From the NCBI GenBank assembly GCA_036381035.1, contig DASVDQ010000048.1, positions 1-35,141 of the forward strand: a DNA stretch of 35,141 nt, written 5' to 3'. Shown here in pieces: positions 5,226-29,418 of this stretch (position 1 is its first letter; each line of letters begins with the position of its first letter). The notes beneath the pieces were generated by a model, which saw only the letters and a list, made by a program, of their open reading frames with translations, did not search any database and was not told where the DNA came from. Made by a program: the position numbers and the translations under genes. The stretch is from Trueperaceae bacterium (GTDB lineage Bacteria; Deinococcota; Deinococci; Deinococcales; Trueperaceae).

Positions 5226-5253
5226 GTCAGTATCTCGCTCCCGGGATACTGCC
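5226..5253. repeat. Interspersed palindrome, locus 1 copy a
   Basis: CAGTATCTCG (5228-5237), loop CTCC, CGGGATACTG (5242-5251). The stem is 10 bp with one T-G pair. It belongs to the GTCAGTATCTCG-n4-CGAGATACTGAC family. Its partner copy begins 92 bp downstream. Confidence 0.8.
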
Positions 5254-5317
5254 TGGACGCGCGATTATCCGAGCGAGGCCGCTCCCAGAGGGCATCTCTC
5301 TGTCCCTAAGCCGCGAA

Positions 5318-5347
5318 AGTCACCATCCCGGCAGCGAGATACTGACT
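5318..5347. repeat. Interspersed palindrome, locus 1 copy b
   Basis: Left arm AGTCACCATCCCG (5318-5330), loop GCAG, right arm CGAGATACTGACT (5335-5347). The right arm is the family consensus; the left arm has three changes. It is followed at once by the degenerate tandem repeat at 5346-5456. Confidence 0.75.
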
Positions 5348-5456
5348 GAGCGTGTGGCGAAAGACAAGTAGCCGGGCACACGGCTGAGCGTGTGGCGAGA
5401 GACCGGTGGCCCAGCACCTGACCAAGTGTGCGCCGAGGGACCGGTGGCCCGGGCGG
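5346..5456 (+). repeat. Three degenerate tandem repeat units of ~34-39 bp
   Basis: Three units begin CTGAGCGTGTGGCGA (5346), CTGAGCGTGTGGCGA (5384) and CTGACCAAGTGTGCGCCGA (5418). Units 2 and 3 share GACCGGTGGCCC. The box GCCGAGGGACCGGTG in unit 3 recurs once at 13465-13479, just downstream of the second palindrome pair. No coding frame explains the repeats. Confidence 0.6.
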
Positions 5457-5475
5457 CCGACCCGCCCCCGCGCGC

Positions 5476-5481
5476 TAACCT
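5476..5481 (+). promoter_or_regulatory. Possible -10 box for the DUF2461 gene
   Basis: TAACCT lies 12 nt before ATG 5494, with no Shine-Dalgarno sequence between. It resembles the -10 to start arrangement of other genes in the window, though the gap is longer. Confidence 0.3.
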
Positions 5482-5493
5482 GGCCGTGACGCC

Positions 5494-6144
5494 ATGCCCG
5501 ACGACCAGCGCTTCACCGGCTTCTCGCCCGACGCCTTCAGGTTCTTCGCCGAGCTGCACCTCGACAACTCGCGGACGTTCTGGGAGGCGAACAAGCAGCG
5601 GTACCTCCAGAACGTGCGCGCGCCACTGGAGGCGCTCGCGCGCGAGCTGGAGGGCGCGTTCGGCGAGTGGCACGTGTTCCGCCCCTACCGCGACCTGCGC
5701 TTCACTAAGGACAAGCGGCCGTACAAGGAGCGGGCCGCGATGCAGTTCGGCGGGCGGGGCCCGGGCGCGGTGGGCGGCCAGTACCTGCAGGTCGGCGCCG
5801 ACGGGCTGTTCCTCGGCGTCGGCACCTACTACCTCCACGACGAGCACCTGAAGCGCTACCGCCGCGCCGTGGCCAACGACCGCGCGGGCACGGAGCTCGA
5901 GGAGATCGTCGCCGAGTTGACGGCGAAGGGCTACGGGCTCGCCGGCGAGACGCTCAGGCGCCCGCCGCAGGGCTTCACCGACGACCACCCTCGCGTCGCG
6001 CTGCTCAAGCGCAAGGGCCTGGCCGCCACCGTCCAGTTCGCGCCCGAAGAGTGGATGTACGGCCCCGAGGCCATCGACCGGGTCGCCCAGGTCTTCGCCG
6101 ACGGCGAGCGTCTCTGCGCCTGGTTCAGGTCGCGGGTGGCGTAG
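5494..6144 (+). CDS. DUF2461 (TIGR02453) family protein
   Basis: A 216-aa cytoplasmic protein whose whole length matches what I know of the DUF2461 family. It has the opening FxGFSPDAFRFFAELHLDNSRTFWEANK, the central DLRFTKDKRPYKERAAMQF block (~69-87), a GGQYLQVGADGLFLGVGTYYL strand pair, and the closing region with LKRKGLAATVQF. The family is widespread in bacteria and some fungi, and no biochemical function is established as far as I know. There is no signal peptide or membrane span. The gene stands alone: it is divergent from relA across the repeat region and convergent with the LptF/G-like gene 65 bp downstream. No terminator-like hairpin is evident in that gap. Confidence 0.9.
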   Translation: MPDDQRFTGFSPDAFRFFAELHLDNSRTFWEANKQRYLQNVRAPLEALARELEGAFGEWHVFRPYRDLRFTKDKRPYKERAAMQFGGRGPGAVGGQYLQVGADGLFLGVGTYYLHDEHLKRYRRAVANDRAGTELEEIVAELTAKGYGLAGETLRRPPQGFTDDHPRVALLKRKGLAATVQFAPEEWMYGPEAIDRVAQVFADGERLCAWFRSRVA

Positions 6145-6209
6145 CGGTCTCGGGCAGCCCCGTGGGCCCGTGGCCCCGAACGGCGCCGAGGCGCGTCCGC
6201 GTCCGGCCC

Positions 6210-7331
6210 TCAGGCCCGTCGACGCGCCAGCAGGAGCAGCCCGAGAACGACGAAGACGAGGTTCCCGCCCCAGGCGCCCAGCCACACGGGTATCGCGCCG
6301 GTCTGGGCGAAGAGCTGTCCGAACGTGTAGAAGAGGTACCAGATCAGCGTCACGACGAGGCTGACGCCGAAGGCCACGCCGCGCGAGCGCGAGTACGACA
6401 GGGCCAGCGGCACCGCCACGAGGAGCAGGACGAGGTTCGTGAACGGCTCGGCGAGCTTGCGCTGGTAGAGCACCTCCGCCTGGCGGCGCTCGCTCACCGA
6501 GATGAGGTCGTTCTCGGCGTCCCGCCGCAGCTCGCTGAGGGAGCGGCTGTCCTCGAAGCCGCCGCCGGAGAAGCGGGCGATGAGGTCGTCGGCGGTGTAC
6601 GAGGTCGTCACGACGAGCGTCTGCTCCGGGTCGGGCGGCACGTTGCGCAGGCGCACGAGGTTCGCCAGCGCCAGCGCCGGGTCGGAGACGGCCACGTCGA
6701 GCGCCCCTAGGTCGAGCCTGTCGATGCGGTAGCCGCTCAGCACCAGGTCGGTGCCTTGGAAGACCGCCGAGTCGGCGCGCAGGAGCGTGAGCACGTCGCC
6801 CTCCCAGCGCTCGATCCTCACGCCCAGCATGCCGTTGCCGCCGTTGGTGGTGGCGTCGAAGTGGAGCAGGAAGTCGTCGATGGGCAGGTTCTGGCGGGCG
6901 AGCCGGAACAGGCCGGAGCGGCCGGTCGTGAGGCGCCAGTAGGTCTCGGCGGTGCGCGCGTTCGTCACCGGCAGCACCCACTGGTTCATCGCCAGGACGG
7001 CGCCCGCGCTCACCGCCCCCAGAGCCACGAAGGTGAACGCCACGCGGCGCAGCGGCACGCCGCCCACCTGCATCGCCAACAGCTCGTGCTCGGTGGCGAG
7101 GCGGCCGAGCGCGATGAGTACCGCCAGGACCAGCGCTATGGGCAGCGTCTGCACCAGCGCCTGGGGGAGCTGCAGCACCAGCCAGGCCAGTAGCTCCGCC
7201 ACCGGCGTGCCCACGATCCACTGCAGGCGGGGGATCGTGACCGACACGACCGCCAGCGACGCGTAGAGCACCAGCCCGAACAGGAACGGGGGGAGGGCCT
7301 CCCGCAGGACGTAACGGTCGACGAGCTTCAC
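6210..7331 (-). CDS. LptF/LptG-family permease (YjgP/YjgQ)
   Basis: A 373-aa inner-membrane protein with the family layout. It has three spans in the N-terminal third (about residues 13-115), a large non-membrane beta-rich domain (~120-270), and three spans at the C-terminus (LLLVAVPLAL, SLVVTLIWYLFY, NLVFVVLGLLLL). In LPS-bearing bacteria LptF and LptG pair with LptB to extract lipid from the inner membrane and pass it to LptA via LptC. Here only one such gene is seen, downstream of lptA- and lptD-like genes on the same strand. The GTG at 7331 is chosen over the ATG at 7358 for two reasons: GGAGGGG (7340-7346) sits 8 nt upstream of it, and the ATG at 7358 overlaps a TATCAT -10 box. F versus G cannot be assigned from sequence alone. 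Confidence 0.9.
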   Translation of the reverse strand: MKLVDRYVLREALPPFLFGLVLYASLAVVSVTIPRLQWIVGTPVAELLAWLVLQLPQALVQTLPIALVLAVLIALGRLATEHELLAMQVGGVPLRRVAFTFVALGAVSAGAVLAMNQWVLPVTNARTAETYWRLTTGRSGLFRLARQNLPIDDFLLHFDATTNGGNGMLGVRIERWEGDVLTLLRADSAVFQGTDLVLSGYRIDRLDLGALDVAVSDPALALANLVRLRNVPPDPEQTLVVTTSYTADDLIARFSGGGFEDSRSLSELRRDAENDLISVSERRQAEVLYQRKLAEPFTNLVLLLVAVPLALSYSRSRGVAFGVSLVVTLIWYLFYTFGQLFAQTGAIPVWLGAWGGNLVFVVLGLLLLARRRA

Positions 7332-7356
7332 GGGGCGCGCCCCTCCATGAAGGGCC

Positions 7357-7362
7357 ATGATA
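7357..7362 (-). promoter_or_regulatory. -10 box for the LptF/G-like gene
   Basis: TATCAT on the minus strand lies 25 nt before the GTG start and leaves room for a short leader carrying GGAGGGG. It suggests the permease can be transcribed separately from lptA-lptD. No -35 consensus is visible. Confidence 0.35.
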
Positions 7363-7425
7363 CCCGCGCGCCTCGCTCGCCCAGGACTCCCCTGGCCGGC
7401 CCTACGGCTCGGCGGGTGCCTCCCC

Positions 7426-9555: not shown

Positions 9556-9558
9556 CGC

Positions 9559-10239
9559 CTAAAGATAGGCTCTGAAGCGCTCCAGTAGGGCGGGGCTGAC
9601 CTCGGTGGCGGCCGAGTACACGACCTCGTCGCCGCGCTGCTCCAGGCTGAGCTGCAGCAGGCCGCCCGCCGCCGGCGACCTCATCGTGAAGAGCGCGCCC
9701 GCGAACTCGTAGCGCCCGTCGAGCAGGACGTCGCCGTTCAGGGTGTCGAGCAGCACGCGGTCGGCGGAGAACCTCGGCTCGGTGCCGGTGACCCCGCCGT
9801 CGAAGACGATGACCTGCTCCAGCGCGTGGTAGCGCAGCGAGCCGGCCGTCACGACCAGGCCGTCGCGGCTGAGGCGCAGCTCGCCCGACGCCGTGAGCAC
9901 GCTGCCCTCCACGTCGATGTGCAGCTTCTCGGCGACCAGGTCCCCGAAGTCGCCGGAGGCGGTGACGCCCGACGCCTCGATGTACTCGCCGTCCACGTAC
10001 TTGATGACCGCCGCCCGCACCTCGACGCCGGTGTGCGCGTCCCGCAGCGTGCCGCCGTCCGGCAGCGTCGTGAGGCCGGTGACGATGTCGATGGTCTGCC
10101 GTCCGTGCGAGACGATGACGAGCGCGGCGAACGGCTTGTCCTCGGCTGACGATCCGGCGGGCCGGTCCGGGCCCTGGGCCGCTCCCACCGCTAGCAGGAG
10201 CGCCGTCAAGGACGCGAGGACCGGCCGCCTCACCTGCAT
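9559..10239 (-). CDS. LptA/OstA-like periplasmic protein
   Basis: A 226-aa exported protein with signal peptide MQVRRPVLASLTALLLAVGA (cut near 22). The mature part shows the repeating strands of the OstA/LptA fold: IVTGLTTLPDGGTLRD, EYIEASGVTASGDFGDLVAEKLHID, LTASGELRLSRDGLVVTAGSLRYHA, FDGGVTGTEPRFSADRVLLDTLNGDVLLDGRY. In Gram-negatives LptA polymerises into the bridge that carries lipid across the periplasm. It is first in a minus-strand run lptA-like, lptD-like, lptF/G-like, with 3 nt to the next gene. The ATG lies 6 nt after a TAGACT box, implying a leaderless transcript. What lipid it carries is unknown, since Deinococcota are generally held to lack classical LPS. Confidence 0.8.
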   Translation of the reverse strand: MQVRRPVLASLTALLLAVGAAQGPDRPAGSSAEDKPFAALVIVSHGRQTIDIVTGLTTLPDGGTLRDAHTGVEVRAAVIKYVDGEYIEASGVTASGDFGDLVAEKLHIDVEGSVLTASGELRLSRDGLVVTAGSLRYHALEQVIVFDGGVTGTEPRFSADRVLLDTLNGDVLLDGRYEFAGALFTMRSPAAGGLLQLSLEQRGDEVVYSAATEVSPALLERFRAYL

Positions 10240-10245
10240 CGCGCG

Positions 10246-13149: not shown

Positions 13150-13156
13150 GAGCGCG

Positions 13157-13162
13157 AGTATA
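13157..13162 (-). promoter_or_regulatory. -10 box for the M16 operon (leaderless arrangement)
   Basis: TATACT on the minus strand, followed by 7 nt (CGCGCTC) and ATG 13149. It is the best match to TATAAT in the window. No ribosome binding site is present. Confidence 0.55.
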
Positions 13163-13310
13163 GCCCCGTGGCGCGCGCGGCCCGGTCTCCGGCCGTGCTC
13201 CTGAGGTGCGTTCGGTTCGGGCCTCGGGCCGGCTCTGGCGTGGCCCCTGTCGCGGCCGCTCGGGCGTGGCCCCGGCTCCCGCCGGGTGGTATCCCCGCCC
13301 GGCACCTTCA

Positions 13311-13338
13311 AGTCAGTATCTCGCCAGCGAGCTACTAG
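13311..13338. repeat. Interspersed palindrome, locus 2 copy a
   Basis: Left arm AGTCAGTATCTCG (13311-13323), which is the consensus, loop CCAG (13324-13327), right arm CGAGCTACTAG (13328-13338) with some drift. The partner starts 94 bp downstream. Confidence 0.75.
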
Positions 13339-13404
13339 CCCCCACACTTCGCCGCGCTACGCGTGCCGTCAGCGACGGACCTAGAGACCTGCTGAACGCC
13401 TCTC

Positions 13405-13433
13405 GTCAGTATCTCGGCAGCGGGATAGTGACT
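13405..13433. repeat. Interspersed palindrome, locus 2 copy b
   Basis: Left arm GTCAGTATCTCG (13405-13416), loop GCAG, right arm CGGGATAGTGAC (13421-13432). It is followed by TCGAGGGGGGCACGA, similar to the right flank of the copy at 29295-29332. Confidence 0.8.
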
Positions 13434-13527
13434 CGAGGGGGGCACGAAGCGACCTCAGGTGCCCGCCGAGGGACCGGTGTGGGCTGGGGCGGCGCGCGCC
13501 CACCCCTCACCCCGGCCGACCATTCCC

Positions 13528-14716: not shown

Positions 14717-14724
14717 GGACCGAC

Positions 14725-14730: not shown

Positions 14731-14819
14731 GCGCCGGGAGCGGCGCGGCGCACCACCCGAACACGAAGGTCGCGTGAAGGGCAGTTCGTGGCGTCGGGAC
14801 CGGCCCTCTCATGGGTTCG

Positions 14820-14938: not shown

Positions 14939-17900
14939 ATGTCACGCCGAAGAGCATCCCTCATCGCCATCGTCGTCTTGGCGGTCCTCGCGGCGTTGGC
15001 GTTCCTGCCCGCGCTGCCCCCCGTGCGGGGGTTCATCGTCGAGCGCGTGGTGCAGGCGCTGGAGCGTTCCGGCACGCACGTCACCTACACCGGCACCGAG
15101 GGCAACGCGTGGCGCGGCGTCGCCCTGCACGGCGCTACCATCGCGGGTCCCGGCGTGGGCGTGACCGTCGACCGGCTGCGCGTGGGCTACTTCCTGCCCT
15201 CCCTCATCGGCGGCGAGCTCCCCCTCGACATCGAGGTCAGCGGCGCACGCGGGCGGGTGGACCTATCGCGGTTCCTCAGCGGAGCCGCGGCCGCGCCGGG
15301 GGCGCCGGCCGGTCCGCTCACCCTGCAGCTCCGCCGGCTGGCGCTCGACGACGTCTCTGTCGACGTCGAGGAGCTCCCGTTCACGCTGCCCGACGCCACG
15401 CTCTCCGACGTCCAGGTAGCGCAGAGCGGAACCGCCCTCGACCTCACGGGTACCGTGACGACCGCCGACGGCTCCGCCTACGTGGCCGGTCGCTTCGAGA
15501 CGCTCACGGGCAGCTTCGACGCGCGCGTCGAGCGCGCCGACGCCACCCTCGCCCGCAACTGGTGGCAGGGCGTCACGGCCGGCGAGGTCACCGGCGAGCT
15601 CCACGTGCGCGGCTCGCAGATCGCCGGCAGCTTCGACGTCACGGGTGGCGCCGTCGACGACCTGGGCATCGCTGCCACCGGGGTCGCCGGCCACGTGGTG
15701 CTCGACTACCCGGTGATCACGGCCGACCTTACCGGCAACGCGCTCGGCGGTCCTGTCGCGGCCACGGGCGTCGTGAACGTCGACGCGCGGCGCTGGGAGG
15801 CGCAGGCGACGGGCAGCCCCGGTCTGGCGGAGGCCGCCGGCTGGCTCCTGCGCGGCAGCTACCCCGACGGTCCGCCGGTGGCGCTCGTCGGCACCGCCTC
15901 CGTCGAGCTGAGCCTCAGCGGGTGGGACCACGTCGTGCTCGACGGCTCGGCGACGGCAGCCGGGACCGTCGAGGGCCTCCCGCTCGACCACCTCAGCACG
16001 GCGTTCCGACTTCCCCCCGACGGTCGGATCAGGGCGCAGGGGCTGGCCGTGCTCGGCGGCGGCGACGTCCGCTTCGAGCTCGGGCCGGGCCAGGAAGGCG
16101 ACGACCTGGTCGTGACCGCCGACGGCGTCGGCCTCTCGACCCTGGGCGAGGGCCTCGGCGCCGTCGACGCCCGCCTGCGCCTCGCGCTCGGCGGGCGCGA
16201 GGACGGCGAGCTCGCGCTGTCCTGGGCCGGAGAGGTCGCCGGCCGGCAGGCCGAGGCGCGCCTCGACGCCCGCCTCGACCCCGACGGCTGGCAGGGCTTC
16301 GTCACCGGCAGCGACTCCGCCGGCGCGCGCCTCGAGGGCGCCGTGGTGCTCGCCGACGGCACGCTCGAGGGCGGCCTGACGCTGAGCAGCCTCGGCCTGG
16401 ACCCATTGCCCGCGGGTGCGTCCGTCGCCCTCGGCGTCTCCGGCCCGGCCAGCCTGGACGGCGCGCGCGTGACGGTCGCTCTCACCGGCGACGACCCGGT
16501 CACGGTCCCCGGCCTCCCCGACGGCCCCGACCTGCGCGGCAGCGCCTCCGGCGTCTACGACCCCGCGCGCTCGCGGGTCACGGGGCTCGTGGGCCGCTTC
16601 GGCCCCGTGATCGTCTCGGGGGCTCTCGACCTCGACCCCGTCGCGCTCGTCGCCGACGTCATCGTCGAGCCCACGCGCCTCGCGCTCGAGGGCGGCGGTG
16701 CGGCCGCCTCGCTGACCGTGCCGTCGAGCTCGCTCGTGTTCGGGACCGACGGCCTGTCGTGGCACGGGCGCGTCGAGTACGCCGACGCGTCAGCCGGGCC
16801 CGCCGCGACCGCTGACGGCGCGCTGCAGGCCGACGCCAGCCTGGACGCCGCCACGGGCGCGTGGCGCGTCACCGCCGCGTCGGCGGCGGGCGACCTCCGC
16901 CTGGAGGCGGGACCGGGCGGAGCTAGCGCCGTCCTCGACGGCCTCCCCGTGACTGTCGCCGACGGGGACGGTCCGCCGGCCCTGGCCCTGGCCCTCTCGG
17001 GCCGCGCCTCGGCCCCCAGCGGCGCCGGACCCGTGAGCGTCGACGTGACGGTCGACGACGCGGGCGGCGGACGCGTCGCCCTGCCGGCCGGCGTGAGCCT
17101 GGCTGGCGACGCCGACGTCGGCGCTGCCCGCCTGCACCTCGCGGGCGCGGTGGGCGACCTGCCCGTCACCCTCGGCGCCGCGTGGGACGGGCCGCTGCGC
17201 GCCACGGCCGAGCTCGGCCCATCCGGCAGCGAGCGCGTCGTCGCCGCCTACGACGCCGCCACCGGCCAGGTCACCGCCGCGGGCGAAGTGGACCTGGCCA
17301 GGTACTGGCGGCTGGTCACGCGCCAGGAGCCGCCGCTCGAGGGCACGCTCGCCCTGGACCTCAGCGGTCGGCTCGGCGCGGGCGTCCTCGACGGCGTCGC
17401 GGGCACCGCGACCGTAGCGGTGACCTCCCCCGTGGCCGCCACCGCGGTGGTCACCGGGCGCGGCGACTCCCTCGCCGTCACCCTCGAGGCCGAGGCGGCG
17501 GGCCTGCCCGTGCGCGGCGCGGGCGAGGTCCGCCTCGCCGACCTGGGACCCGACACGCCTCTGCTCACCGTAGACGCCGGGCCGCTCGAGGACCTCGTCC
17601 TCACCGTCAACGGCCTAGAGGGGAGCGGCACGATCCCCGGTGTCGCGGCCGGTCCGGCGGCGGTGCCGGACGTGCCGTGGAGCCTCCGGGCCGACTGGAG
17701 CGGCGCGCCCACGGCCCTGGTGCGCCTCGCCGACTCCGAGCTGACGCTCACCCTGGAGGGCGGCGCCGTCGTCACGAGCGGGCCCGTCACGCTGCCCGCC
17801 ACCTACGCCGGCGAGGCGCTCGCGCTCACCCTCGACCTGCCGGAGCGCCGCGTCGACCTCGCGGACCCCACCGCCGCGCAGGTGCGCGCCAGCGTCTCCA

Positions 17901-20900
17901 GACCCGGCGAGGACCCGCTCCTCGAGGCGTCCGGCACGCCGGGGAACCTAGCTATCACCGGCGCGATCCCCGCCGGTCTCCTCGCCGCCCCGCTGCCCGA
18001 GCCCGCGAGGCCCGCGGGCGAGCTGGCCGTGAGCGGCAGCGCCGACCTGCTCGCCGGCGAGGCGGCCGTGTCGGTGGGCGAGGACGTGGCCGCCACGTTC
18101 CGGGACGGCACGCTCGAGCTGACGGCCCGCGGCGCCGACCTGACGACGCACGTGCCGGCGGCGGCGCCGGCCGGCCTCCGGGCCCAGCTCGACGGCACGC
18201 TCCGCCACGAGCCGGAGCGGGGCTGGCTGGGCGAGCTCGTGGCCGGCCTCTCCCTCCCCGGCACCGAGCCCACGGACGCCACGGTCACGCTCACCGGAGC
18301 CGGACCCGAACTGGCGCTCGCCGTCGCCGCCACCGGGCCGCTCGAGACCACGCTCCTGGCGCACGGCACCGTGTCACCCGAGCTGCGCCTGGAGGGCGAC
18401 GCCCGGGCGCTCGGCGGCGCGGTGACGGCCGCGATCGCGGCGACGCCGGAGGACGGCCTGCGCGTGGCCCTGAGCAGCGCTGCCCTCGCGGGCGAGCCCT
18501 ACTTCGCGCTGCCGCCGCTCGCAGCGAGCCTCACCGTGCCGGCCGCGGGCGGCGGTCCGCTGCTGACCGGCGACTGGGTCGACGCCCGCGTGGCGGAGGG
18601 CGGCACCATCGAGGGGCGCGTCGAGCTGCCGTTCACGCTCCTGGGCGCGCCCGCCACGCTGACCGCCGAGCTCGGGGGCACGCTAGACGACCCGACGGCG
18701 ACGGCCACCCTGACGGGCGCCGGCGTCACGGCGACGGCCGAGGGGAGCCTGCGCGCCGCGTCGGCCGAGGCGACGCTCACCGAGCCGGCCATCGCGGCGG
18801 CCCTGCCAGCAGGCGCCCGCGCGGCGGCAGGGATGGTCGCCTCGCCCGTGCTCGTGCGAGCCGCCTGGACGCCGGCGGACGGCTGGGACCTCGACGCCGC
18901 CGCCCGCGCGGAGCTGCCCGCCGCTGGTCAGGTCGACCTGGCCCTGGCGCTCTCCGGCGACGGCGCCGTCTACGCCGGTGAGCTCGCAGCCTCCCTCCCG
19001 GCCGCGCCGGGCGCGGCGCCCGTCGCCGTGGCCTCGCTCGCCGGAGAGGGCGCCGACCTCACCGCCGAGCTGGACATGGCCGCCGTCGACTTCGCGAGGA
19101 TAGGCGCCGCCTACGGCGTCGACGTCGACGTGCTGGCCAGCGGCCGAGCGTTCCTAGGCACCGATCCCGCTACCGCGGAGCTCACGCTCGACGTGTCTGG
19201 CACGGTGGAGGGCGCCGCGGTCTCACTGGCCGGTTCGGCGCCGGACGACCTGCGGTTCACGCTGCGGGCGCCGCAGCTCGACGTCGCCGGCCGGCTGGCG
19301 TGGCACGCGCGACGCCGCGTCGTCGTCTCCGGCCAGGCGGCGGGCCAGCCGATCGACGCCTGGCTCGAGGTCGACGACGCCTTCGAGAACGGGCGGCTGC
19401 ACGTCGACGTCCCCGGCGCGTCCCTCGAGGCCGTGCTGGCGGCGCCCGAGCCGGGCGTGCGCACCGCCGCGTTCGAGGGCGGGCTGGCGGGCGGGCCGCT
19501 CGGCTTACATGGCGAGCTGAGCGGTGAGGTCGTGGCGCGGGGCGCCGAGGTCGAGCTCGCCGACCTGACGGCCGAGCTGTCGGGGCTGCCCGCGCCGCTG
19601 GCCGGGGAGCGCCTGGCGGTCGCGGGGAGCGGGACCCTGGCCCCCCGTCTCGACGTCGGCGGCGCGCTCACCGCGACCGAGGGCCCGCTGGCCGAGGCGG
19701 CGGGCGAGGGGGCCTGGCGCGTCGCCGGCGACCCGCTGGAGGCCAGCGTGACGTGGCTCGGCCTGGAGGCGGCCTACGGCCTCGGCTCTGGCGAGGCGCG
19801 GCTGCGGCCGGTGGGGGACGTCGCTCCCGCGGTGGCGGTGCTCCTGCCGGAGCTCGCCGGCGCCGACCTGCGGCTCGAGGGCCCCGGCCTCGCCTGGAGC
19901 CGCGAGGCGGGCTTCGGTGGAGCGCTGACCGCGACGGCCTCGGGCGGTCCCGTGCCCGCCGAGGCGGCGCCGGTGACCGTCGCGCTGCGCGGCGCCTCAG
20001 GCGGCGACCTGGCGGTCGCCGCCACGGCCGGCGAGGACAGCGCCGGCGCGCCCCTGGTGGCGCTCAACGCCGTCGTGCCGGCCCACGCGCCGCTCACGGG
20101 GGCATTGACCGCCGACGTCGCCATCGCCGGCGCCGTGGAGGCGGCGGGTCGTCTCACCGCCGGCGCGGGCGGCCTGACGCTCGACGTCGCGGGCGAGGGC
20201 CTCTCCCTGCAGGCGAGCGTAGGCGCCGACGGCTGGTCGGTCTCCGGAGCGCTCGACGGCATGCCCGTCGCCGACGTGCTGCCGCTGCGGGAGGACCCGC
20301 GGGTGAGCCTCAGCCTCACGGGCGGCTCCGCGACCGGCGGGCTGGCCGTGGAGGACCTCGTCGTCGCGAGCGGCGCCAGCCGGCTCGAGGGGTCGGCGTC
20401 GTTCGACGGCCGGCTGCGCATGGCCTTGCGGGCGCAAGTGGACCTGGCCGACGTGGACGCCGGCGACACGCGGCTCACGGGCCTGCTGCGCGGGCCCATC
20501 GTCCTCGTCGCGCCCCAGCTCGAGGACCTGGGGCAGGTCACGGTGACGGCGCAGCTCGACGCCGCCGGCGTGGGCGTCGCTGGCGTGCCCGTCCTCGTCG
20601 ACGGCGGCCTGCAGGTGGGCGGCACCGCCGCCGACCCCGTGGTCTTCGCGGCGCTCTACGGACGCGGCGACCTGCGCGGCGCGCTGCGCCTCGAGGCGGC
20701 CCCGCGACGCGGGCGCCTCGACGTCCGCTCCACCCTGGCGTACCGCGACCTCACCAGCGACGTGCAGGTCGCGGTGTCCGGTGAGGAGGTGGTCGCGAGC
20801 GGCAGCCTCCGGGCGGGCGACGCGGTCCTGCTCGTCTCCGACCTCGGCGGCGCGGCGACGCTCACGGGCGCGGGGCGGCTCGACGGCTGGCAGGGAACGG

Positions 20901-23900
20901 TGTCACCCGGGCTCGCCGGGTTCGTGGTCGAGGGCCCCCTGGCCGCTCTGTCCCCCACGCTGCGGGGCTCGGCCCGACTCGCGCTCGGCGAGCCGGCCGG
21001 CGAGGGAGCCTGGCTGCGCGGGGAGTTCGCCGACCTCGCCGTCGCCGGCCAGGAGGTGGGCGACCTCGCGATCACTTCGGCAACCGCCGGGGCGCCGATC
21101 GCCATAGACGGCGACGGCGTGAGCGGCGTGTTCGACCCCGCCGACCAGTCGTGGATCCTGGAGCTAGAGGGCCTGACCCTGCCGGGCTCGCTGACCCTGG
21201 CCCTCGCCGCCGCCGGACGAGGACCGGAGGGCCGCGCCACCGGCCGCCTCGCGGGCGGCGCCGAGCTGGGCGTGGACGTGGGCGTCGAGGCGGAGGTCGG
21301 CGCGGGCGGCGCCAGCTTCTCGGCCTCCGGGACCGCCCTGGGCGGCGAGCTGTCCGTCTCCGGTCGCCGGCCGGCCGGCCGGGGGTGGACCGGCGAGGTG
21401 GCCCTGCAGGGGGCGGAGCTGCCGGCCACGGACGGCGAGCCGGCGGCGGTGCTGTCGGCGACGGGCGTCCTCCAGGGCAGCGGGCCCGTGCCCCAGGTGA
21501 TACTCGCCACCGCGGCCTACGCGCAGGGCGCGGGCGTCGCCGCCGCCGGACGCGCGTCCATCGGCCCCGGGGGCGTGACACTCGACCAGACCGTCGCGCT
21601 GCCGCGCGCCACGGCCCCGCTGCGGGTGGAGGGCCGCCTGGCGCCCGGCCTCGACGTCAGGCTCAGCGCCGCCGGGGCGGCCCCTGGGCAGCCGAGCGGC
21701 GAGGTGCGCCTCCTCGAGCGCCAGGACGGCCTCGCGGCGATGGGCGCGCTGCAGGTGCCTCTCGGACCCGTCACCGTGAGGCTGGGGTCCGTCGGCTCGT
21801 CTCAGTCGCCGCAGCTCACGGTCACGCCGACGTCGCTGCCCGACGCCAGGCTCTCGGCCGACCTGGCCGCCGACGGGCTCCTCGAGCTGGTCTCCCGCGT
21901 AGCGAGCGAGGGGCTCGTCGTCACCGGGGGCGGGGCGGCCAGCGGCTCGGCCAGGCTGGACGTCGCGGCAGGGTCGTTGGAGCTGCGGCAGCTGGGGCTC
22001 GCGGTGTCGGGCTTCCGGGCCACGCTGTCCGGCAGGCTCGCGCCGGCGTCCGCCGACCTGGAGGGCTGGCTGGAGCTGCCCCTCGACACCCCGGACCCCG
22101 CCTCCAGGAGGCTGCCGGTGGCGGTGAGCGCGGCGGGCGGCCAGTGGCGGCTCAGCTCGAGCAGCCCGCTGGGCGAGGTCGCGGCCAGCTACGACGCGTC
22201 GTCGGGCGCAGCGCTCCTCGACGTGGCGCTCGAGCTGCGGAGCGACGGGAGCGGCGGCAGCCTGCTGCCGGGCGTGTCGGCCGGCGCCGTGAGCGCGCAC
22301 CTGGCCTACGAGCCGGGGGCACCGCCCTCGGGCACGCTCTCCGTAGACGGCGTGCGGCTCACGCCGCCGGGCTGGGGCGAGGTCACCGTGAACGCCGACG
22401 CCGCGCTCGCGAACGGACGCCTCGAGGGGGCCGCGACCGTCGCCACCGCGGCGGGCAGCCTGAGCGTGAGCGGCGACGCCCCGGTGCCGAGGCTGCTCAC
22501 CGCCCTCGGCGTCGAGCCCGAGGTAGCGGCTGCGGCGGCCGGCGGCTCCGACCAGCCCGGCGCCACCGAGGTCGAGCTGCGGCTCCGCACGATCGAGCTC
22601 GGCGCGGTCCCGTTGATCGCGTCGTCGGCCCCGCACCTCTCCGGCGCCCTCTCGGGCGTCGTGCGGCTGCAGGGCGACTTCGTGTTCGGCCAGCTCGTCG
22701 CGCCGGACCTCGCCGTGGGCGAGAACAGCCTGCCGGTTACGGTGCAGGTCTCGGGCCCGACCTCGCGCGTCGACGCCGACGTCATGCTGGGCAGGTCGCT
22801 GCTCGCGCTCACGCTCTCCGACCTGACGCTGTCGGGATCGGCGCGCCTCGAGCGCCTCCCGCTCGACCTGCTGGCCGAGGCGGTCGTGGGGCCGACCGAC
22901 GTCACGGCGTTGCTCACCGGCGTCGCCCGCGTCGACCTGCCGCTGACGGACCCCGGCGCCGGCTACGCCGCCGTGGCCAGCGAGGAGCTCACCCTCCAGC
23001 GCGCCGGCGTCCTGACCCGCGGCGAGGTCACCCTCGTCTACGACCGGGGCTCGCTGTCCGTCGAGCGCGCCACGTTCTCGGGTCGCGGCGACTGGCACGC
23101 CGCCGGCGTCCTCGCGCCGGACCGGCTCGGCTTCGAGCTCGTGGCCGACGAGGCCGACTTCGGCCCCTTGCTCGGCCTGGTGCCGGGCCTGGCGCTCCTC
23201 GGCGTGGGCGCCGAGGGCAGCTTCGCCTTCGCGGCGTCAGGCACGCTGGCCGAGCCGCTGGTCACCTTCCAGACCGACGCGCTCGACTTCAGCGTGGCCG
23301 GCACCACGTACAGGCTCGCCGACACCGACGTGAGCCTCGAGGGCGCCGCGCTCTCGGCGGAGGCCACGCTCAGCGCCCTCTCGCCCGTGCGGGGCGACCT
23401 GCGCCTCGCCGGGGACGCGACCCTGGTGCTCGAGCCCTTCTCCCTGCGCGCCGCCGACCTGCGCTTCGAGGGGGCGCTGGTCGTGCCTGGCGTGGGGCGG
23501 ATCGAGGACGTGTCCGGCTCGGTGACCCAGGACCCGCTGTTCCGGCCGTTCCTCGCCCTGACGGGGCGCCTCGGGGCGCCGCTCGCCGTGCAGGGCACGC
23601 TCGTGCCGCTCGACCTCAGGGCCGGCGGAACCGGGCTGCACGTCGCCTACCCCGGCCTGCTCATCGCCGACTCCACGCTGGCGGCCGACCTCCGGCTCGT
23701 GGGCGGCGAACGCGGCGTCGCCCTGAGCGGCGCGATCGAGGCCGACGAGGTCGTCATCGACCCCAGCGCGGCGGCGCCCGCAGAGGCGGACGAAGCGCCG
23801 GCCGGCGCCGGTGCGGAGGCGGCGGGAGCCGAGGAGGCCCGGGCAGGAGCCGGCGGGGACGCGGCCCCGGCCGCGGAGGGTGCGGCCGAGGCGGCGGAAG

Positions 23901-25066
23901 CGGCAGGAGCCGAGGACGCCGAGGTCTCCGCCGGCGACCAGGCTGCCGAGGACCCGAGGGCGAGCACCGTCGACCCGGCCGGCATGGCCCCCTCGCCAGT
24001 AGCGCCGACCGCCGCCGAGCCGGCGCCCGCGGGGGGTCTCGCGAGCCTGCGCTTCGACGACCTGCGCATCACGGCGCCGCAGCGGGTCGTGATGACCACC
24101 TCGTTCGCCTCGCTCGAGGCGTCACTCGACCTCACGCTCTCCGGCACCGGCGCCGAGCCGCGTCTGTCGGGCGAGGCGCGGGCGCTGCGCGGGAACCTGC
24201 GGTTCTCCGGGCGCGACTTCACCGTCGACCAGGCGGTCGCCACGTTCAGCCCCAACCGCGGCGTGCTGCCCGACCTGGACGTGAGCGCGCACACCGAGTT
24301 CGAGAAGGCGCGCGTGCTCGCGGGCAGCACCGACGTCGAGTTCGTGGCGCCTGAGGGCCGCACGTTCAGGGTCGACCTCGCCTTCTCCGGGCCCGTCGAG
24401 CTCGACGAGGACGGCGGCGTGCGCTTCGACGTGAGGCCGACGCTGACGTCCGAGGCGCTCATCGAGGTCGGGCCGGGCGACGCCGACCCCGCCGCCGCGG
24501 TGGGCAACGGGGTGCGCCCGCTCACGCAGGCCGAGCTGCTGACGCTCGTCACCCTCGGCCGGCTCGAGCTGGGGTCCGACCTCATCGGCGCCGGCGGCCT
24601 GGGCGGCGCGGTGGCGCAGGGCGCGCTCGACACCGCCGTCGACGTCCTGCTGCTCGGCGAGCTGCAGAACGCCCTGCGCGAGGCGCTCGGCCTCGACGTC
24701 CTGGAGATCCGCACCTCGTCGATCACCCAGCTCATCGACGGCGACCAGCCGTTCGGCGTGTCGGTGCGGCTGGGCGGCTACCTGAACCCCGAGCTGTTCG
24801 CCAGCTACCGCATCGGCACCGCCGACCCCGACGACCCGGGCTTCGCGGTCACGAACGAGGTCGCGCTGCAGTACGCGCTAGGCCCGCTCGACCTGGAGGT
24901 CTCGGGGCGCATCGACTTCCCCACGACCGGCGTGCTGGCGTCTCCCCGCTCGGCCCTCGGCCTCGGGCTCTCCTACGACGTCAGCCGGTGGCTGGGCCTC
25001 GACCTCTCGACCTCGCTCTCGACCGAACGCAGCCTCATAAGCTTCGGCGTGACCCTGCGGTGGTAG
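14939..25066 (+). CDS. tamB: Giant TamB-like translocation/assembly protein (3375 aa)
   Basis: A single uninterrupted 3375-residue frame. Residues ~8-28 are an N-terminal membrane anchor (LIAIVVLAVLAALAFLPALP), and the start of the mature part resembles AsmA/TamB proteins. Almost all the rest is short alternating strands rich in Ala, Gly, Val, Leu and Asp, as expected of the beta-taco groove that shields lipids or beta-barrel precursors across the periplasm. The last ~330 residues match the TamB C-terminal (DUF490) domain: ALRGNLRFSGRDFTVDQAV, TQAELLTLVTLGRLELG, LDVLEIRTSS, VSVRLGGYLNPELFASYRIG, and a terminal strand ending GVTLRW. An Ala/Glu-rich linker at residues ~2940-3030 precedes it. 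E. coli TamB has 1259 residues, so this is about 2.7 times longer. Large TamB-like proteins are, to my recollection, known in Deinococcus. No TamA/BamA gene is in the window. PckA follows 21 bp downstream. Confidence 0.88.
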   Translation: MSRRRASLIAIVVLAVLAALAFLPALPPVRGFIVERVVQALERSGTHVTYTGTEGNAWRGVALHGATIAGPGVGVTVDRLRVGYFLPSLIGGELPLDIEVSGARGRVDLSRFLSGAAAAPGAPAGPLTLQLRRLALDDVSVDVEELPFTLPDATLSDVQVAQSGTALDLTGTVTTADGSAYVAGRFETLTGSFDARVERADATLARNWWQGVTAGEVTGELHVRGSQIAGSFDVTGGAVDDLGIAATGVAGHVVLDYPVITADLTGNALGGPVAATGVVNVDARRWEAQATGSPGLAEAAGWLLRGSYPDGPPVALVGTASVELSLSGWDHVVLDGSATAAGTVEGLPLDHLSTAFRLPPDGRIRAQGLAVLGGGDVRFELGPGQEGDDLVVTADGVGLSTLGEGLGAVDARLRLALGGREDGELALSWAGEVAGRQAEARLDARLDPDGWQGFVTGSDSAGARLEGAVVLADGTLEGGLTLSSLGLDPLPAGASVALGVSGPASLDGARVTVALTGDDPVTVPGLPDGPDLRGSASGVYDPARSRVTGLVGRFGPVIVSGALDLDPVALVADVIVEPTRLALEGGGAAASLTVPSSSLVFGTDGLSWHGRVEYADASAGPAATADGALQADASLDAATGAWRVTAASAAGDLRLEAGPGGASAVLDGLPVTVADGDGPPALALALSGRASAPSGAGPVSVDVTVDDAGGGRVALPAGVSLAGDADVGAARLHLAGAVGDLPVTLGAAWDGPLRATAELGPSGSERVVAAYDAATGQVTAAGEVDLARYWRLVTRQEPPLEGTLALDLSGRLGAGVLDGVAGTATVAVTSPVAATAVVTGRGDSLAVTLEAEAAGLPVRGAGEVRLADLGPDTPLLTVDAGPLEDLVLTVNGLEGSGTIPGVAAGPAAVPDVPWSLRADWSGAPTALVRLADSELTLTLEGGAVVTSGPVTLPATYAGEALALTLDLPERRVDLADPTAAQVRASVSRPGEDPLLEASGTPGNLAITGAIPAGLLAAPLPEPARPAGELAVSGSADLLAGEAAVSVGEDVAATFRDGTLELTARGADLTTHVPAAAPAGLRAQLDGTLRHEPERGWLGELVAGLSLPGTEPTDATVTLTGAGPELALAVAATGPLETTLLAHGTVSPELRLEGDARALGGAVTAAIAATPEDGLRVALSSAALAGEPYFALPPLAASLTVPAAGGGPLLTGDWVDARVAEGGTIEGRVELPFTLLGAPATLTAELGGTLDDPTATATLTGAGVTATAEGSLRAASAEATLTEPAIAAALPAGARAAAGMVASPVLVRAAWTPADGWDLDAAARAELPAAGQVDLALALSGDGAVYAGELAASLPAAPGAAPVAVASLAGEGADLTAELDMAAVDFARIGAAYGVDVDVLASGRAFLGTDPATAELTLDVSGTVEGAAVSLAGSAPDDLRFTLRAPQLDVAGRLAWHARRRVVVSGQAAGQPIDAWLEVDDAFENGRLHVDVPGASLEAVLAAPEPGVRTAAFEGGLAGGPLGLHGELSGEVVARGAEVELADLTAELSGLPAPLAGERLAVAGSGTLAPRLDVGGALTATEGPLAEAAGEGAWRVAGDPLEASVTWLGLEAAYGLGSGEARLRPVGDVAPAVAVLLPELAGADLRLEGPGLAWSREAGFGGALTATASGGPVPAEAAPVTVALRGASGGDLAVAATAGEDSAGAPLVALNAVVPAHAPLTGALTADVAIAGAVEAAGRLTAGAGGLTLDVAGEGLSLQASVGADGWSVSGALDGMPVADVLPLREDPRVSLSLTGGSATGGLAVEDLVVASGASRLEGSASFDGRLRMALRAQVDLADVDAGDTRLTGLLRGPIVLVAPQLEDLGQVTVTAQLDAAGVGVAGVPVLVDGGLQVGGTAADPVVFAALYGRGDLRGALRLEAAPRRGRLDVRSTLAYRDLTSDVQVAVSGEEVVASGSLRAGDAVLLVSDLGGAATLTGAGRLDGWQGTVSPGLAGFVVEGPLAALSPTLRGSARLALGEPAGEGAWLRGEFADLAVAGQEVGDLAITSATAGAPIAIDGDGVSGVFDPADQSWILELEGLTLPGSLTLALAAAGRGPEGRATGRLAGGAELGVDVGVEAEVGAGGASFSASGTALGGELSVSGRRPAGRGWTGEVALQGAELPATDGEPAAVLSATGVLQGSGPVPQVILATAAYAQGAGVAAAGRASIGPGGVTLDQTVALPRATAPLRVEGRLAPGLDVRLSAAGAAPGQPSGEVRLLERQDGLAAMGALQVPLGPVTVRLGSVGSSQSPQLTVTPTSLPDARLSADLAADGLLELVSRVASEGLVVTGGGAASGSARLDVAAGSLELRQLGLAVSGFRATLSGRLAPASADLEGWLELPLDTPDPASRRLPVAVSAAGGQWRLSSSSPLGEVAASYDASSGAALLDVALELRSDGSGGSLLPGVSAGAVSAHLAYEPGAPPSGTLSVDGVRLTPPGWGEVTVNADAALANGRLEGAATVATAAGSLSVSGDAPVPRLLTALGVEPEVAAAAAGGSDQPGATEVELRLRTIELGAVPLIASSAPHLSGALSGVVRLQGDFVFGQLVAPDLAVGENSLPVTVQVSGPTSRVDADVMLGRSLLALTLSDLTLSGSARLERLPLDLLAEAVVGPTDVTALLTGVARVDLPLTDPGAGYAAVASEELTLQRAGVLTRGEVTLVYDRGSLSVERATFSGRGDWHAAGVLAPDRLGFELVADEADFGPLLGLVPGLALLGVGAEGSFAFAASGTLAEPLVTFQTDALDFSVAGTTYRLADTDVSLEGAALSAEATLSALSPVRGDLRLAGDATLVLEPFSLRAADLRFEGALVVPGVGRIEDVSGSVTQDPLFRPFLALTGRLGAPLAVQGTLVPLDLRAGGTGLHVAYPGLLIADSTLAADLRLVGGERGVALSGAIEADEVVIDPSAAAPAEADEAPAGAGAEAAGAEEARAGAGGDAAPAAEGAAEAAEAAGAEDAEVSAGDQAAEDPRASTVDPAGMAPSPVAPTAAEPAPAGGLASLRFDDLRITAPQRVVMTTSFASLEASLDLTLSGTGAEPRLSGEARALRGNLRFSGRDFTVDQAVATFSPNRGVLPDLDVSAHTEFEKARVLAGSTDVEFVAPEGRTFRVDLAFSGPVELDEDGGVRFDVRPTLTSEALIEVGPGDADPAAAVGNGVRPLTQAELLTLVTLGRLELGSDLIGAGGLGGAVAQGALDTAVDVLLLGELQNALREALGLDVLEIRTSSITQLIDGDQPFGVSVRLGGYLNPELFASYRIGTADPDDPGFAVTNEVALQYALGPLDLEVSGRIDFPTTGVLASPRSALGLGLSYDVSRWLGLDLSTSLSTERSLISFGVTLRW

Positions 25067-25087
25067 CCTCGTGACTCGGAGGGAACT

Positions 25088-26737
<1,650 letters not shown>

Positions 26738-26805
26738 GGCGGAGCGGCGACGCGGCCCCGGCGGTCCCTCGCCGACCAGGGCCCGGCAAGCCCCACCGGC
26801 AACGG

Positions 26806-28455
26806 CTAGTCGCTCGGCTCCCAGCGCGCCAGCCGGCGGCTCCCCGCCAGCAGCGGCACGAGCGTGAACAGGGCGCACACCAAGGCGAGGCCGGCCAGCA
26901 CCAGCAGGCCGTCGGGGGCCGTCCAGGAGAAGGCTCCGGCACCTCCGGCCAGCGCCCGCCACGACGGGTAGGCGAACAGCAGCGTCGACAGGGCCGCGTA
27001 GGCGAGCGACAGCGCCATGTAGAGGAGCCCGCCGCTCGAGACGGCGACCTCGTGGGGGTTCACGCTGTCGAAGCGCGGGAACGCCGCGCCGAGCCCCACG
27101 CCCAGGCCTGCCGTGGCGAACGCCGCCAGGCCGCCGGCCAAGGGGGCGGCGAACGCCAGCGCCGGCGAGAGCTCGAGGCGCCCGGCCACGGCGAGGCCGA
27201 GGCCCACGCCCAGCGCCAGCATCGGGGGCAGCGCGCCGAGGAACTTCGCGAACACCACCCGCCACGCCCGCACCGGCGCGGTGCGCAAGAGCCAGACCGC
27301 CTCGCCCTCGAGCGACACCAGCGGGAACGCCAGCCTCACGCCCACGCCGGCGAGGAGGAAGGCGAGGAACGCCACGTTCATCGCGCCTATGACGTCGCGG
27401 AAGCGCTGGATCCCCACCGAGAGGCTCGCGGTGCTGATGAAGTAGACGCCGGCCAGCGCGCCCAGGACTAGGAGCTGCGACCACTGCGACGGGTCCCGCA
27501 GCAGCAGGCGCACGTCCTTCACGACCATCCCCCCACCCACGGGGCCCAGGACCCTCTCCCACGCCGGCGGACGCTCCGAGGAGCGCCTCCTGCCGCCGCC
27601 CCAGGGCGTGTCCCCCTCGGTGCGGTACCAGCCGGCCGCGTAGGCGCGGGTCGCGAGGAGCACCAGCCCGCCCAGCGTGGCGAGCGCGAGGGCCACCAGC
27701 AGCGTGGCGCCCGCGGAGAAGCGCCCCTCGAGGCCGTGCCACACGGCGTCGGCGGCCCAGGTGCTGGGCAGCCAGCCGATGTCGAGGGCGGCGAAGCGCT
27801 GCAGGAGCACCTCGAACTCCTCGGGCGTGAGCGCCTGCAGCTGCTCCGGCCGCAGCGCGCGCAGCCCGAGCACCAGCCCGGCGGCCACGACGACGCTGGC
27901 GGCCGTCGCGAACTCCCGCGCCTTGCCCGCCGGGGCCACGCGCATCAGCACGAGCGCCAGCAGCGCGCCGAGGGCCACCGGGAGCGCGTAGAGGCTGGCC
28001 AGCGCCAGCAGCGCCACGGGGTAGTAGAGCGCGGGCGCGAGGCGCTCGCCGCCGAGGGCGACGAGCACCGGCACCGTGAACACCGCCGGGAGCAGGGCGC
28101 TCGAGGCGTAGGTCTCGGCGACCTTCAGCGCGAACACGCGGAACGCCGGCACCGGCTGCGAGAGCAGGAAGGGCAGGTCGACGGAGCCGTAGAGCGTGCC
28201 GATCGAGCCCGTCAGCACCGAGAAGGCCACGGCGACCATCAGCACCGCCAGCATGCCCTCGAGGCTGCGCCGCGCCACGGCGTCGGCGATCGTGCCGATG
28301 TCGGGGTAGGTCGCCAGGAAGCGGAGCCCGCGGACCGTGATCGCGTGCATCCCCCAGTAGACGAGCGCCAGCAGCGCCACGCCCACGACCGCGCGCGTCG
28401 GGCGTCGGCGGAGGGAGTTGAGGGCGCCGCGCAGGCGCATCGCGAGGAGCGCCAT
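26806..28455 (-). CDS. ABC exporter permease (large, multi-span)
   Basis: A 549-aa very hydrophobic protein with about 12-14 predicted spans. Two groups of spans are separated by a hydrophilic segment at ~295-325 (YRTEGDTPWGGGRRRSSERPP), followed by VVKDVRLLLRDPSQWSQLL, a phrase typical of the putative ABC exporter / ABC-2-like permease families. Near the N-terminus LPFLLSQPVPAFRVFALKV is also characteristic. It is the membrane partner of the ATPase gene 4 nt upstream. The substrate is not evident. Length and layout suggest that one polypeptide supplies both half-channels. It converges with pckA across 68 bp. Confidence 0.85.
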   Translation of the reverse strand: MALLAMRLRGALNSLRRRPTRAVVGVALLALVYWGMHAITVRGLRFLATYPDIGTIADAVARRSLEGMLAVLMVAVAFSVLTGSIGTLYGSVDLPFLLSQPVPAFRVFALKVAETYASSALLPAVFTVPVLVALGGERLAPALYYPVALLALASLYALPVALGALLALVLMRVAPAGKAREFATAASVVVAAGLVLGLRALRPEQLQALTPEEFEVLLQRFAALDIGWLPSTWAADAVWHGLEGRFSAGATLLVALALATLGGLVLLATRAYAAGWYRTEGDTPWGGGRRRSSERPPAWERVLGPVGGGMVVKDVRLLLRDPSQWSQLLVLGALAGVYFISTASLSVGIQRFRDVIGAMNVAFLAFLLAGVGVRLAFPLVSLEGEAVWLLRTAPVRAWRVVFAKFLGALPPMLALGVGLGLAVAGRLELSPALAFAAPLAGGLAAFATAGLGVGLGAAFPRFDSVNPHEVAVSSGGLLYMALSLAYAALSTLLFAYPSWRALAGGAGAFSWTAPDGLLVLAGLALVCALFTLVPLLAGSRRLARWEPSD

Positions 28456-28459
28456 GGCC

Positions 28460-29182
28460 CTAGGCGGCCTCCTCGGTCAGGCGCAGGAAGATCTCCTCGA
28501 GGTCGGCCGCGTCGTCGCCGACGCGCTGCCTCAGCTCGGCCAGGGTGCCGCGCGCCACGGCGCGCCCCCGGGTCATGAGCACGATCTCGTCGGCGACGGC
28601 CTCCGCCACCGCCAGCGAGTGCGTGGTGAGCAGCACGGCGCCGCCGTCGTCGGCATGCCGGCGCATCAGGGCCCGCACGTCGCGGGCGCCGCGCGGGTCG
28701 AGGCCGACCATCGGCTCGTCGATCACCAGCGCCGGCGGACGATGCAGCAGCGCGGCGCAGAACGTGAGGCGCTGACGCATGCCGTGCGAGTAGGTCTGCA
28801 CGAGCTCGTCCGCGGCGTGCGCGAGCTCGAACCGCGCGAGCAGCTCGCGTGAACGCTCCTCGGCCCCGTCCACCCGGCGCAGACGTCCCAGGAAGCGCAG
28901 CAGCTCGCGACCCGTGAGGTTCGGGTAGAGGTACGGCCGGTCGGGCACGTAGCCGATGAGCGCCTTGGCCTCCAGGGGCCGCCTGACGACGTCGTGCCCG
29001 CCCACGGTCACCGTCCCCGCCGAGGGCATGACCTGCCCCGTGACGGCGCGGATCGTCGTGGACTTGCCCGCCCCGTTCGGCCCGAGCAGCGCCACCACGC
29101 GCCCGCGGGGGACCGCGAACGACAGGCCGTCCACGGCGGTGACCCGCCCGTACCGCTTGACGAGCCCGTTCACCTCGATCAT
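28460..29182 (-). CDS. ABC transporter ATP-binding protein
   Basis: A 240-aa ATPase of the ABC-2 exporter type (CcmA-like). Walker A GPNGAGKST (34-42), Q-loop region IGYVPDRPYLYPNLTG (76-91), a signature reading YSHGMRQRL (131-139; usual LSGGQ is diverged, as is common in this group), Walker B ALVIDEP (151-157) and switch H188 are all present. The Q-loop position carries VPD instead of the usual glutamine, a variation seen in this subfamily. ATG 29182 is chosen because the family begins IEVNGLVKRYG, and TAGCCT lies 7 nt upstream. It powers the permease encoded directly downstream (4-nt gap). The substrate is unknown. Confidence 0.95.
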   Translation of the reverse strand: MIEVNGLVKRYGRVTAVDGLSFAVPRGRVVALLGPNGAGKSTTIRAVTGQVMPSAGTVTVGGHDVVRRPLEAKALIGYVPDRPYLYPNLTGRELLRFLGRLRRVDGAEERSRELLARFELAHAADELVQTYSHGMRQRLTFCAALLHRPPALVIDEPMVGLDPRGARDVRALMRRHADDGGAVLLTTHSLAVAEAVADEIVLMTRGRAVARGTLAELRQRVGDDAADLEEIFLRLTEEAA

Positions 29183-29189
29183 GCCGATC

Positions 29190-29195
29190 AGGCTA
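29190..29195 (-). promoter_or_regulatory. -10 box for the ABC exporter operon (leaderless arrangement)
   Basis: TAGCCT on the minus strand followed by 7 nt (GATCGGC) and ATG 29182, without a ribosome binding site. Confidence 0.4.
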
Positions 29196-29294
29196 CGTGC
29201 CCGCGGGGGTAGGACCGTGTGGGCGAGTCGTCTCTCGGGGCATCGCTGGCGCGGCGCGTGGCCCGGCCGCAGAGAGAGGCGCCCGACCACCCCC

Positions 29295-29332
29295 CTCGAG
29301 TCAGTATCTCGTCTTCGGCGTACTGACTCGAG
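29295..29332. repeat. Interspersed palindrome, locus 3 copy a
   Basis: This is the longest perfect stem of the family: CTCGAGTCAGTA (29295-29306) pairs fully with TACTGACTCGAG (29321-29332). The inner part reads TCTCG-TCTT-CGGCG. The partner copy follows at 29391. Confidence 0.85.
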
Positions 29333-29390
29333 CGTCTGGAGGCACGAGATCCCCGTCAGGGCCGCGCGCAACGCCGCCAGGGGCCTCCTA

Positions 29391-29418
29391 GGCAGTAGCC
29401 CGCCAGCGGTCTACCGAC
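29391..29418. repeat. Interspersed palindrome, locus 3 copy b (degenerate)
   Basis: GGCAGTAGCCCG (29391-29402), loop CCAG, CGGTCTACCGAC (29407-29418). Relative to the consensus stem, positions 8 (T-A to G-C) and 10 (T-A to C-G) changed on both arms together, which keeps pairing. Three pairs are mismatched. Confidence 0.6.

What the first reader, a model, noticed from the sequence alone, without database searches (positions are those of the whole stretch)
5226..29418. Family of paired imperfect palindromes confined to three intergenic regions
Six copies share the form GTCAGTATCTCG-n4-CGAGATACTGAC at 5226-5253, 5318-5347, 13311-13338, 13405-13433, 29295-29332 and 29391-29418. They come as three pairs. 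Start-to-start distance within a pair, measured from the same arm position, is 92-94 bp, although the sequence between the hairpins is not alike. Every copy lies outside coding sequence. I see no transposase and no T-run, so they are neither an obvious insertion sequence nor classical terminators. A fixed distance of about nine helical turns with unrelated filler suggests protein binding at two sites or a two-hairpin RNA. I do not recognise the family.
Basis: partly seen in the sequence, partly recalled or inferred. Interest (0 to 1): 0.75.

Follow-up and report, generated by a model that had tools for sequence, protein, structure and literature searches.

The report
Paired palindromes inserted between genes
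Six near-palindromic DNA stretches sit as three evenly spaced pairs between genes; they belong to a small repeat family of about ten paired copies found only in this one bacterial genome (a relative of Truepera), look like old insertions of a small mobile element lacking its own enzyme, and are a new family of a broadly known kind.

Summary
A profile trained only on copies outside the window scores the six hairpins 26-40 bits; the next window position scores 5.8. Each is a 28-bp imperfect palindrome, GTCASTAKCYCG-n4-CGRGMTASTGAC, at pair offsets 93, 93 and 91 bp. It is not confined to three intergenic regions: the genome holds ten pairs at eight intergenic sites on four contigs. Nine pairs have offsets of 91-93 bp and one 125. 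Fillers are not measurably alike. No other genome among the 111 held for the phylum has it; the family is Trueperaceae. Flanking genes are unrelated and in every orientation (3 convergent, 2 divergent, 3 tandem). In the relatives G006 and G016 the same gaps are 178-459 bp shorter, against a median difference of 0 elsewhere: the pairs are insertions. The arms show no compensatory changes, so a conserved RNA hairpin is not supported. Best reading: REPIN-like, non-autonomous mobile palindrome doublets, now probably inactive. Membership in REP/REPIN fails on two tested features: no RAYT or other Y1 transposase gene found, and no consistent GTAG tag. Unexplained: regional clustering (P about 3.5e-5), and conserved arms and spacing around free filler. 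A two-site protein-binding element is the main rival.

The parts
5226..5253 (.). Unit U1, left palindrome (arms 2 mismatches to consensus)
   Evidence: 38 bits leave-one-out
5254..5318 (.). U1 filler, 65 bp, not alike to other fillers
5319..5346 (.). Unit U1, right palindrome; offset 93 bp from the left one
13312..13339 (.). Unit U2, left palindrome
13340..13404 (.). U2 filler, 65 bp
13405..13432 (.). Unit U2, right palindrome; offset 93 bp. Whole gap 13150-13527 is 310 bp longer than in G006 and 459 bp longer than in G016
29300..29327 (.). Unit U3, left palindrome (with a 5-bp perfect extension, 29295-29332)
29328..29390 (.). U3 filler, 63 bp
29391..29418 (.). Unit U3, right palindrome, most degenerate copy in the window; offset 91 bp. 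Gap 29183-29489 is 178 bp longer than in G016
5208..5353 (.). Probable extent of the U1 element: in the family, conserved positions run to about 18 bp outside the left palindrome and about 7 bp outside the right one
   Evidence: position-wise information outside the palindromes; boundary inferred

Best explanation
Each pair is one copy of a short (about 130-150 bp) non-autonomous insertion element whose two ends are palindromic (arm order A-A'-A-A'), with an interior whose length but not sequence is kept. It was dispersed into intergenic DNA of this lineage after it split from its sister genera, probably by an enzyme acting in trans on the palindromic ends, in the manner of REPINs. It now appears immobile: no two copies are nearly alike and no Y1-type transposase gene is found. 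Shown: dispersed family, fixed spacing, intergenic-only, insertion relative to two relatives, no gene-orientation preference. Inferred: mobility in trans, recognition of the palindromic ends, present inactivity.
For: Ten pairs, nine with offset 91-93 bp. All eight sites are intergenic where only about 12% of the DNA is intergenic. At the four unit sites with both flanking genes conserved and adjacent in a relative, own gaps are longer by 310/459, 178, 180 and 317/335 bp, against a median difference of 0 over 52 comparisons at other gene pairs. No degenerate copy lies in 225 kb of syntenic relative DNA. Found in none of the other 110 genomes held for the phylum. Flanking genes are unrelated and all orientations occur. 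Conserved positions run a few bases beyond the palindromes and then stop. Precedent for paired palindromes with preferred spacing and variable spacer: PMC3116915 (71 or 110 bp), PMC3733652.
Against: No RAYT or other Y1 transposase gene was found in the 96%-complete genome and no longer autonomous copy was seen. No target-site duplication was demonstrated. There are no near-identical copies: mean arm distance is 28% (13.4 of 48), unusual for a recent mobile family. If copies simply decayed, arms and filler should have diverged equally, yet the arms stay about 72% alike while the filler is at background. Copies are regionally clustered (P about 3.5e-5).
Confidence: 0.55

Rival explanations
1. 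Each pair is an in-place binding site for a dimeric or tetrameric DNA-binding protein (two dyad sites about 92 bp apart), which bridges or loops the two palindromes, perhaps marking particular chromosome regions. Selection keeps arms and spacing and ignores filler.
For: Arms are conserved and spacing is kept within 2 bp in nine of ten pairs while filler is at background. The four arms vary independently, as half-sites would. Sites cluster: four of eight neighbour gaps are at most 16.1 kb (P about 3.5e-5), and C48 and C33 are neighbours in G006. All sites are intergenic.
Against: Absent from every relative, including sister genera, in regions of otherwise conserved gene order. Sites with the element are about 180-460 bp longer than in relatives, more than point mutation to a binding site would need. 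Conserved bases extend outside the palindromes.
Confidence: 0.28
2. The pair acts as RNA: two hairpins or one long hairpin in a transcript that affects stability or termination.
For: U1 folds far better than shuffles (z = -6.5) and U3 somewhat better (z = -2.3). REP and MITE copies can act in this way in other species (PMC3733652).
Against: The other five units tested give z between -1.0 and -2.0. No compensatory changes above shuffles for either pairing. Three convergent, two divergent and three tandem settings, so no consistent transcription direction. No Rfam match.
Confidence: 0.07
3. The pairs are target or attachment sites of a site-specific recombinase that brings in genes (integron-like).
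For: Three of eight sites lie next to genes absent at that place in G006: DUF2461 beside U1, a four-gene block beside U4/U5, a variable region around U6/U7.
Against: The other tested sites have no extra genes in the own genome (U2, U3, U8, U9). Units do not bracket the extra genes on both sides. No integron-type attC core was recognised in the arms.
Confidence: 0.05
4. Chance palindromes in a GC-rich genome.
For: None found.
Against: Held-out profile separation, zero reversed-control hits, repeated 91-93 bp offset in copies outside the window.
Confidence: 0.01

Closest known systems
REPINs / REP dimers (repetitive extragenic palindromes mobilised by RAYT; PMC3116915, PMC3733652)
   Same: Intergenic palindromes in pairs at a preferred distance (71 or 110 bp in P. 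fluorescens SBW25; 91-93 bp here); spacer sequence may vary while its length is kept; some families are small (20-100 units or fewer).
   Different: No RAYT or other Y1 transposase gene found here; no consistent unpaired GTAG (or CGTC) tag; 28-bp palindromes with 12-bp arms, strongly diverged; only about ten pairs, clustered regionally.
Bacterial MITEs (e.g. NEMIS/Correia, RUP, ERIC, YPAL)
   Same: About 100-160 bp, inverted-repeat ends, intergenic, no coding capacity, absent at the same place in relatives.
   Different: The interior is not shared between copies; no parental IS or target-site duplication found; each end is itself a palindrome.
Small noncoding repeats (SNRs) of Deinococcus radiodurans (PMC1978522)
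   Same: Lineage-restricted repeat families within the same phylum (295 copies of at least 9 types in D. radiodurans, none in D. geothermalis).
   Different: SNRs are mosaic and numerous; no sequence comparison with them was made here.
Regional chromosome marks such as matS or parS (from general knowledge)
   Same: Short palindromic sites in several copies, restricted to some chromosome regions.
   Different: Those are single sites; a fixed 92-bp pair and absence from all relatives are not expected.

Membership tests
REP/REPIN | Short imperfect palindromes in intergenic DNA, repeated in one genome | tested here: met
   21 palindromes over 21 bits at 8 intergenic sites
REP/REPIN | Organised as doublets with a preferred distance | tested here: met
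   Nine of ten pairs at offset 91-93 bp
REP/REPIN | GTAG (or CGTC) tetranucleotide tag at one end, outside the stem | tested here: not met
   Outer flanks are of two kinds, TNNAGGG and TNAGCG; TGTAG occurs in only some
REP/REPIN | Associated RAYT (Y1, HUH) transposase gene in the genome | tested here: not met
   PF01797: no match in the own genome (96% complete), while 5 of 39 family genomes have one
REP/REPIN | Excision or transposition observed | not testable with these tools
   Needs deep population sequencing
MITE | Inverted-repeat ends and small size without coding capacity | tested here: met
   Outer arms are inverted to each other, 84% of cells paired; about 130-150 bp
MITE | Interior shared between copies or with a parental IS | tested here: not met
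   Filler similarity at background level; no longer copy seen
MITE | Target-site duplication at the insertion | not tested
   Element edges too diverged and relatives' intergenic DNA too different to fix the insertion point
MITE | Presence/absence at the same place between related genomes | tested here: met
   U2, U3, U8, U9 gaps 178-459 bp longer than in G006/G016
Structured RNA | Compensatory base changes | tested here: not met
   Observed values within shuffles
Intrinsic terminator | Located downstream of genes, hairpin followed by T-run | tested here: not met
   Two of eight sites lie between divergent genes; no T-run in the sequence read

The most novel reading that the evidence does not exclude
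A bipartite, dyad-symmetric protein-binding element with a strictly kept distance of about 92 bp and free filler, acquired by one Trueperaceae lineage and concentrated in a few chromosome regions, where it organises or marks DNA (a lineage-specific chromosome-region mark), rather than a mobile repeat.
Probability: 0.2. Interest if true: 0.7.

Novelty: new variant of a known kind. Interest (0 to 1): 0.42.

Why it matters
It adds a paired-palindrome repeat family to the Trueperaceae, with the REPIN layout (palindromic ends, spacer fixed in length but not in sequence) in a genome with no detectable RAYT. If another enzyme dispersed it, the REPIN layout has arisen or persisted without its usual enzyme; if it works in place, it would be a new kind of two-site chromosomal mark. 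More genomes of this genus would decide between the two.

Tried and rejected
RNA structure: folds and covariation counts for two-hairpin and long-hairpin pairings gave no support, and Rfam found only the SRP RNA. Regulon: flanking genes are unrelated and orientations mixed. RAYT or IS200-type mobiliser: none found in the own genome. Copies in relatives: 61 relatives and all 111 held genomes of the class and phylum, none; the weak hits in relatives that were fetched scored below 18 bits and were unpaired. Collections: the pair pattern in 85,000 species genomes gave seven hits in unrelated taxa, about chance; two from Blastocatellia carry repeats of their own. One viral contig hit was not followed; one plasmid search with U1 had no match. 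Filler and flank homology: first scores against plain shuffles looked significant, but against real intergenic DNA of the same contigs they fell to background, so they are not claimed. Local duplication: copies on one contig are not more alike than others (P = 0.59).

Full report
What was claimed and what is there. The six palindromes exist at 5226-5253, 5319-5346, 13312-13339, 13405-13432, 29300-29327 and 29391-29418. They form three pairs with offsets 93, 93 and 91 bp. With a profile trained only on copies from other contigs, these six are the six best places in the window (26.4 to 40.0 bits); the next scores 5.8, and the reversed window at most 6.0. Chance is excluded.

The family in the whole genome. 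The window is contig C48 of a 3.43-Mb, 170-contig assembly, 96% complete. Pattern, covariance-model and profile searches find further pairs on C33 (24044/24135, 24169/24261, 35415/35508, 35560/35652), C55 (11612/11737, 22188/22280, plus two extra palindromes at 22118 and 22152) and C47 (27411/27502), and weak singles at C26:2908 and C47:42795. That makes ten pairs at eight sites. Nine offsets are 91-93 bp and one is 125. The consensus is GTCASTAKCYCG-n4-CGRGMTASTGAC. The right palindrome of C33 24044/24135 is very degenerate (14 bits) and is accepted mainly for its position. The model searches screen candidates before scoring, so very degenerate copies on other contigs may have been missed.

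Taxon. One relative, G012, has a single contig of 3,260,398 bp, the published length of Truepera radiovictrix RQ-24T (PMC3072082). The family is therefore Trueperaceae, phylum Deinococcota (inferred from that identity). No other genome of the genus appeared among the relatives searched.

Distribution. None of the other 110 held genomes of the class and phylum has a match at E <= 1e-4; the weak hits in relatives that were fetched stay below 18 bits and lack a partner. A pair pattern over 85,000 species genomes gave seven scattered hits, no more than chance would give.

Setting. All eight sites are intergenic, where about 12% of the sequence is intergenic by my gene calls. Three lie between convergent genes (U4/5, U8, U9), two between divergent (U1, U6/7) and three between tandem genes (U2, U3, U10). 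Neighbours include relA/spoT, DUF2461, M16 peptidases, trpC, ABC transporter genes, a CtpB-type protease, a thiolase and a protein kinase. This argues against terminators, promoters or a regulon.

Insertion. C48, C33 and C55 are largely collinear with G006. Where both flanking genes are adjacent in a relative, the own gap is longer by 310 and 459 bp (U2 vs G006, G016), 178 (U3 vs G016), 180 (U8 vs G006) and 317 and 335 (U9); in 52 comparisons at gene pairs without a unit the median difference is 0. G016 has about 4 kb of other DNA at the U8 site. No degenerate copy was found in 225 kb of syntenic relative DNA. The pairs, with some extra DNA, are gains in this lineage, or less likely losses in both relatives.

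Anatomy. Outer arms are slightly better kept than inner arms. Conserved positions run about 7 bp outward on both sides, with further conserved positions at 13-18 bp on the left, then stop; inward only the first base and a few isolated positions exceed the null. Outer flanks are of two kinds, TNNAGGG (mostly left) and TNAGCG (mostly right), so the element may have an orientation (inference). Fillers and wider flanks are no more alike than other intergenic DNA of these contigs. Earlier scores against simple shuffles were misleading in this GC-rich DNA.

Arms. The four arms of a unit do not match each other better within units than between units, and pair counts do not exceed shuffles. This fits DNA half-sites or ends recognised as DNA, not an RNA helix under selection; the sample is small (10 units) and the power modest.

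Mechanism. The best reading is a non-autonomous, REPIN-like insertion doublet. [quoted passage not shown] fluorescens have preferred spacings of 71 and 110 bp with less conserved spacers (PMC3116915). But no RAYT or other Y1 transposase gene is found here, although 5 of 39 family genomes have one and T. radiovictrix has eleven matches, and there is no consistent GTAG tag. So it works like a REPIN at most; it is not filed as one.

What stays unexplained. Arms differ by 28% on average with no nearly identical copies, so there was no recent burst; yet arms and spacing are kept while filler is free, which plain decay does not produce. The copies also cluster: four of eight neighbour distances are at most 16.1 kb, P about 3.5e-5 under uniform placement, a test chosen after seeing the positions. 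Both points favour an in-place function more than the mobile reading does, and are why the rival keeps 0.28.

Noticed in passing
window 287-383: Bacterial small SRP RNA gene (Rfam RF00169, 60.6 bits).
   Followed up: no
window 14939-25066: A 3375-aa reading frame with a TamB domain near its C-terminus; its relative in G006 is only 35% identical over most of its length.
   Followed up: no
window 5494-6144: DUF2461 gene next to U1 lies between relA and the LptF/G gene, which are adjacent in both G006 and G016.
   Followed up: partly
window 5346-5421: Two 38-bp tandem copies (76% alike) directly right of U1; the start TGAGCGTGYGGCGAA recurs right of U10 on C47.
   Followed up: partly
L050:1122-1250 and L052:5698-5823: Two Blastocatellia MAGs carry their own inverted repeats beginning GTCAGTAGCCCG and ending CGGGCTACTGAC; found because the search pattern selects for it, relation unknown.
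   Followed up: no
C33 24352-27309 (own genome; L056:4352-7309): A block of four genes beside U4/U5 is missing at this place in G006.
   Followed up: no
L101:5865-5980: Single viral contig with an exact match to the pair pattern; not inspected.
   Followed up: no
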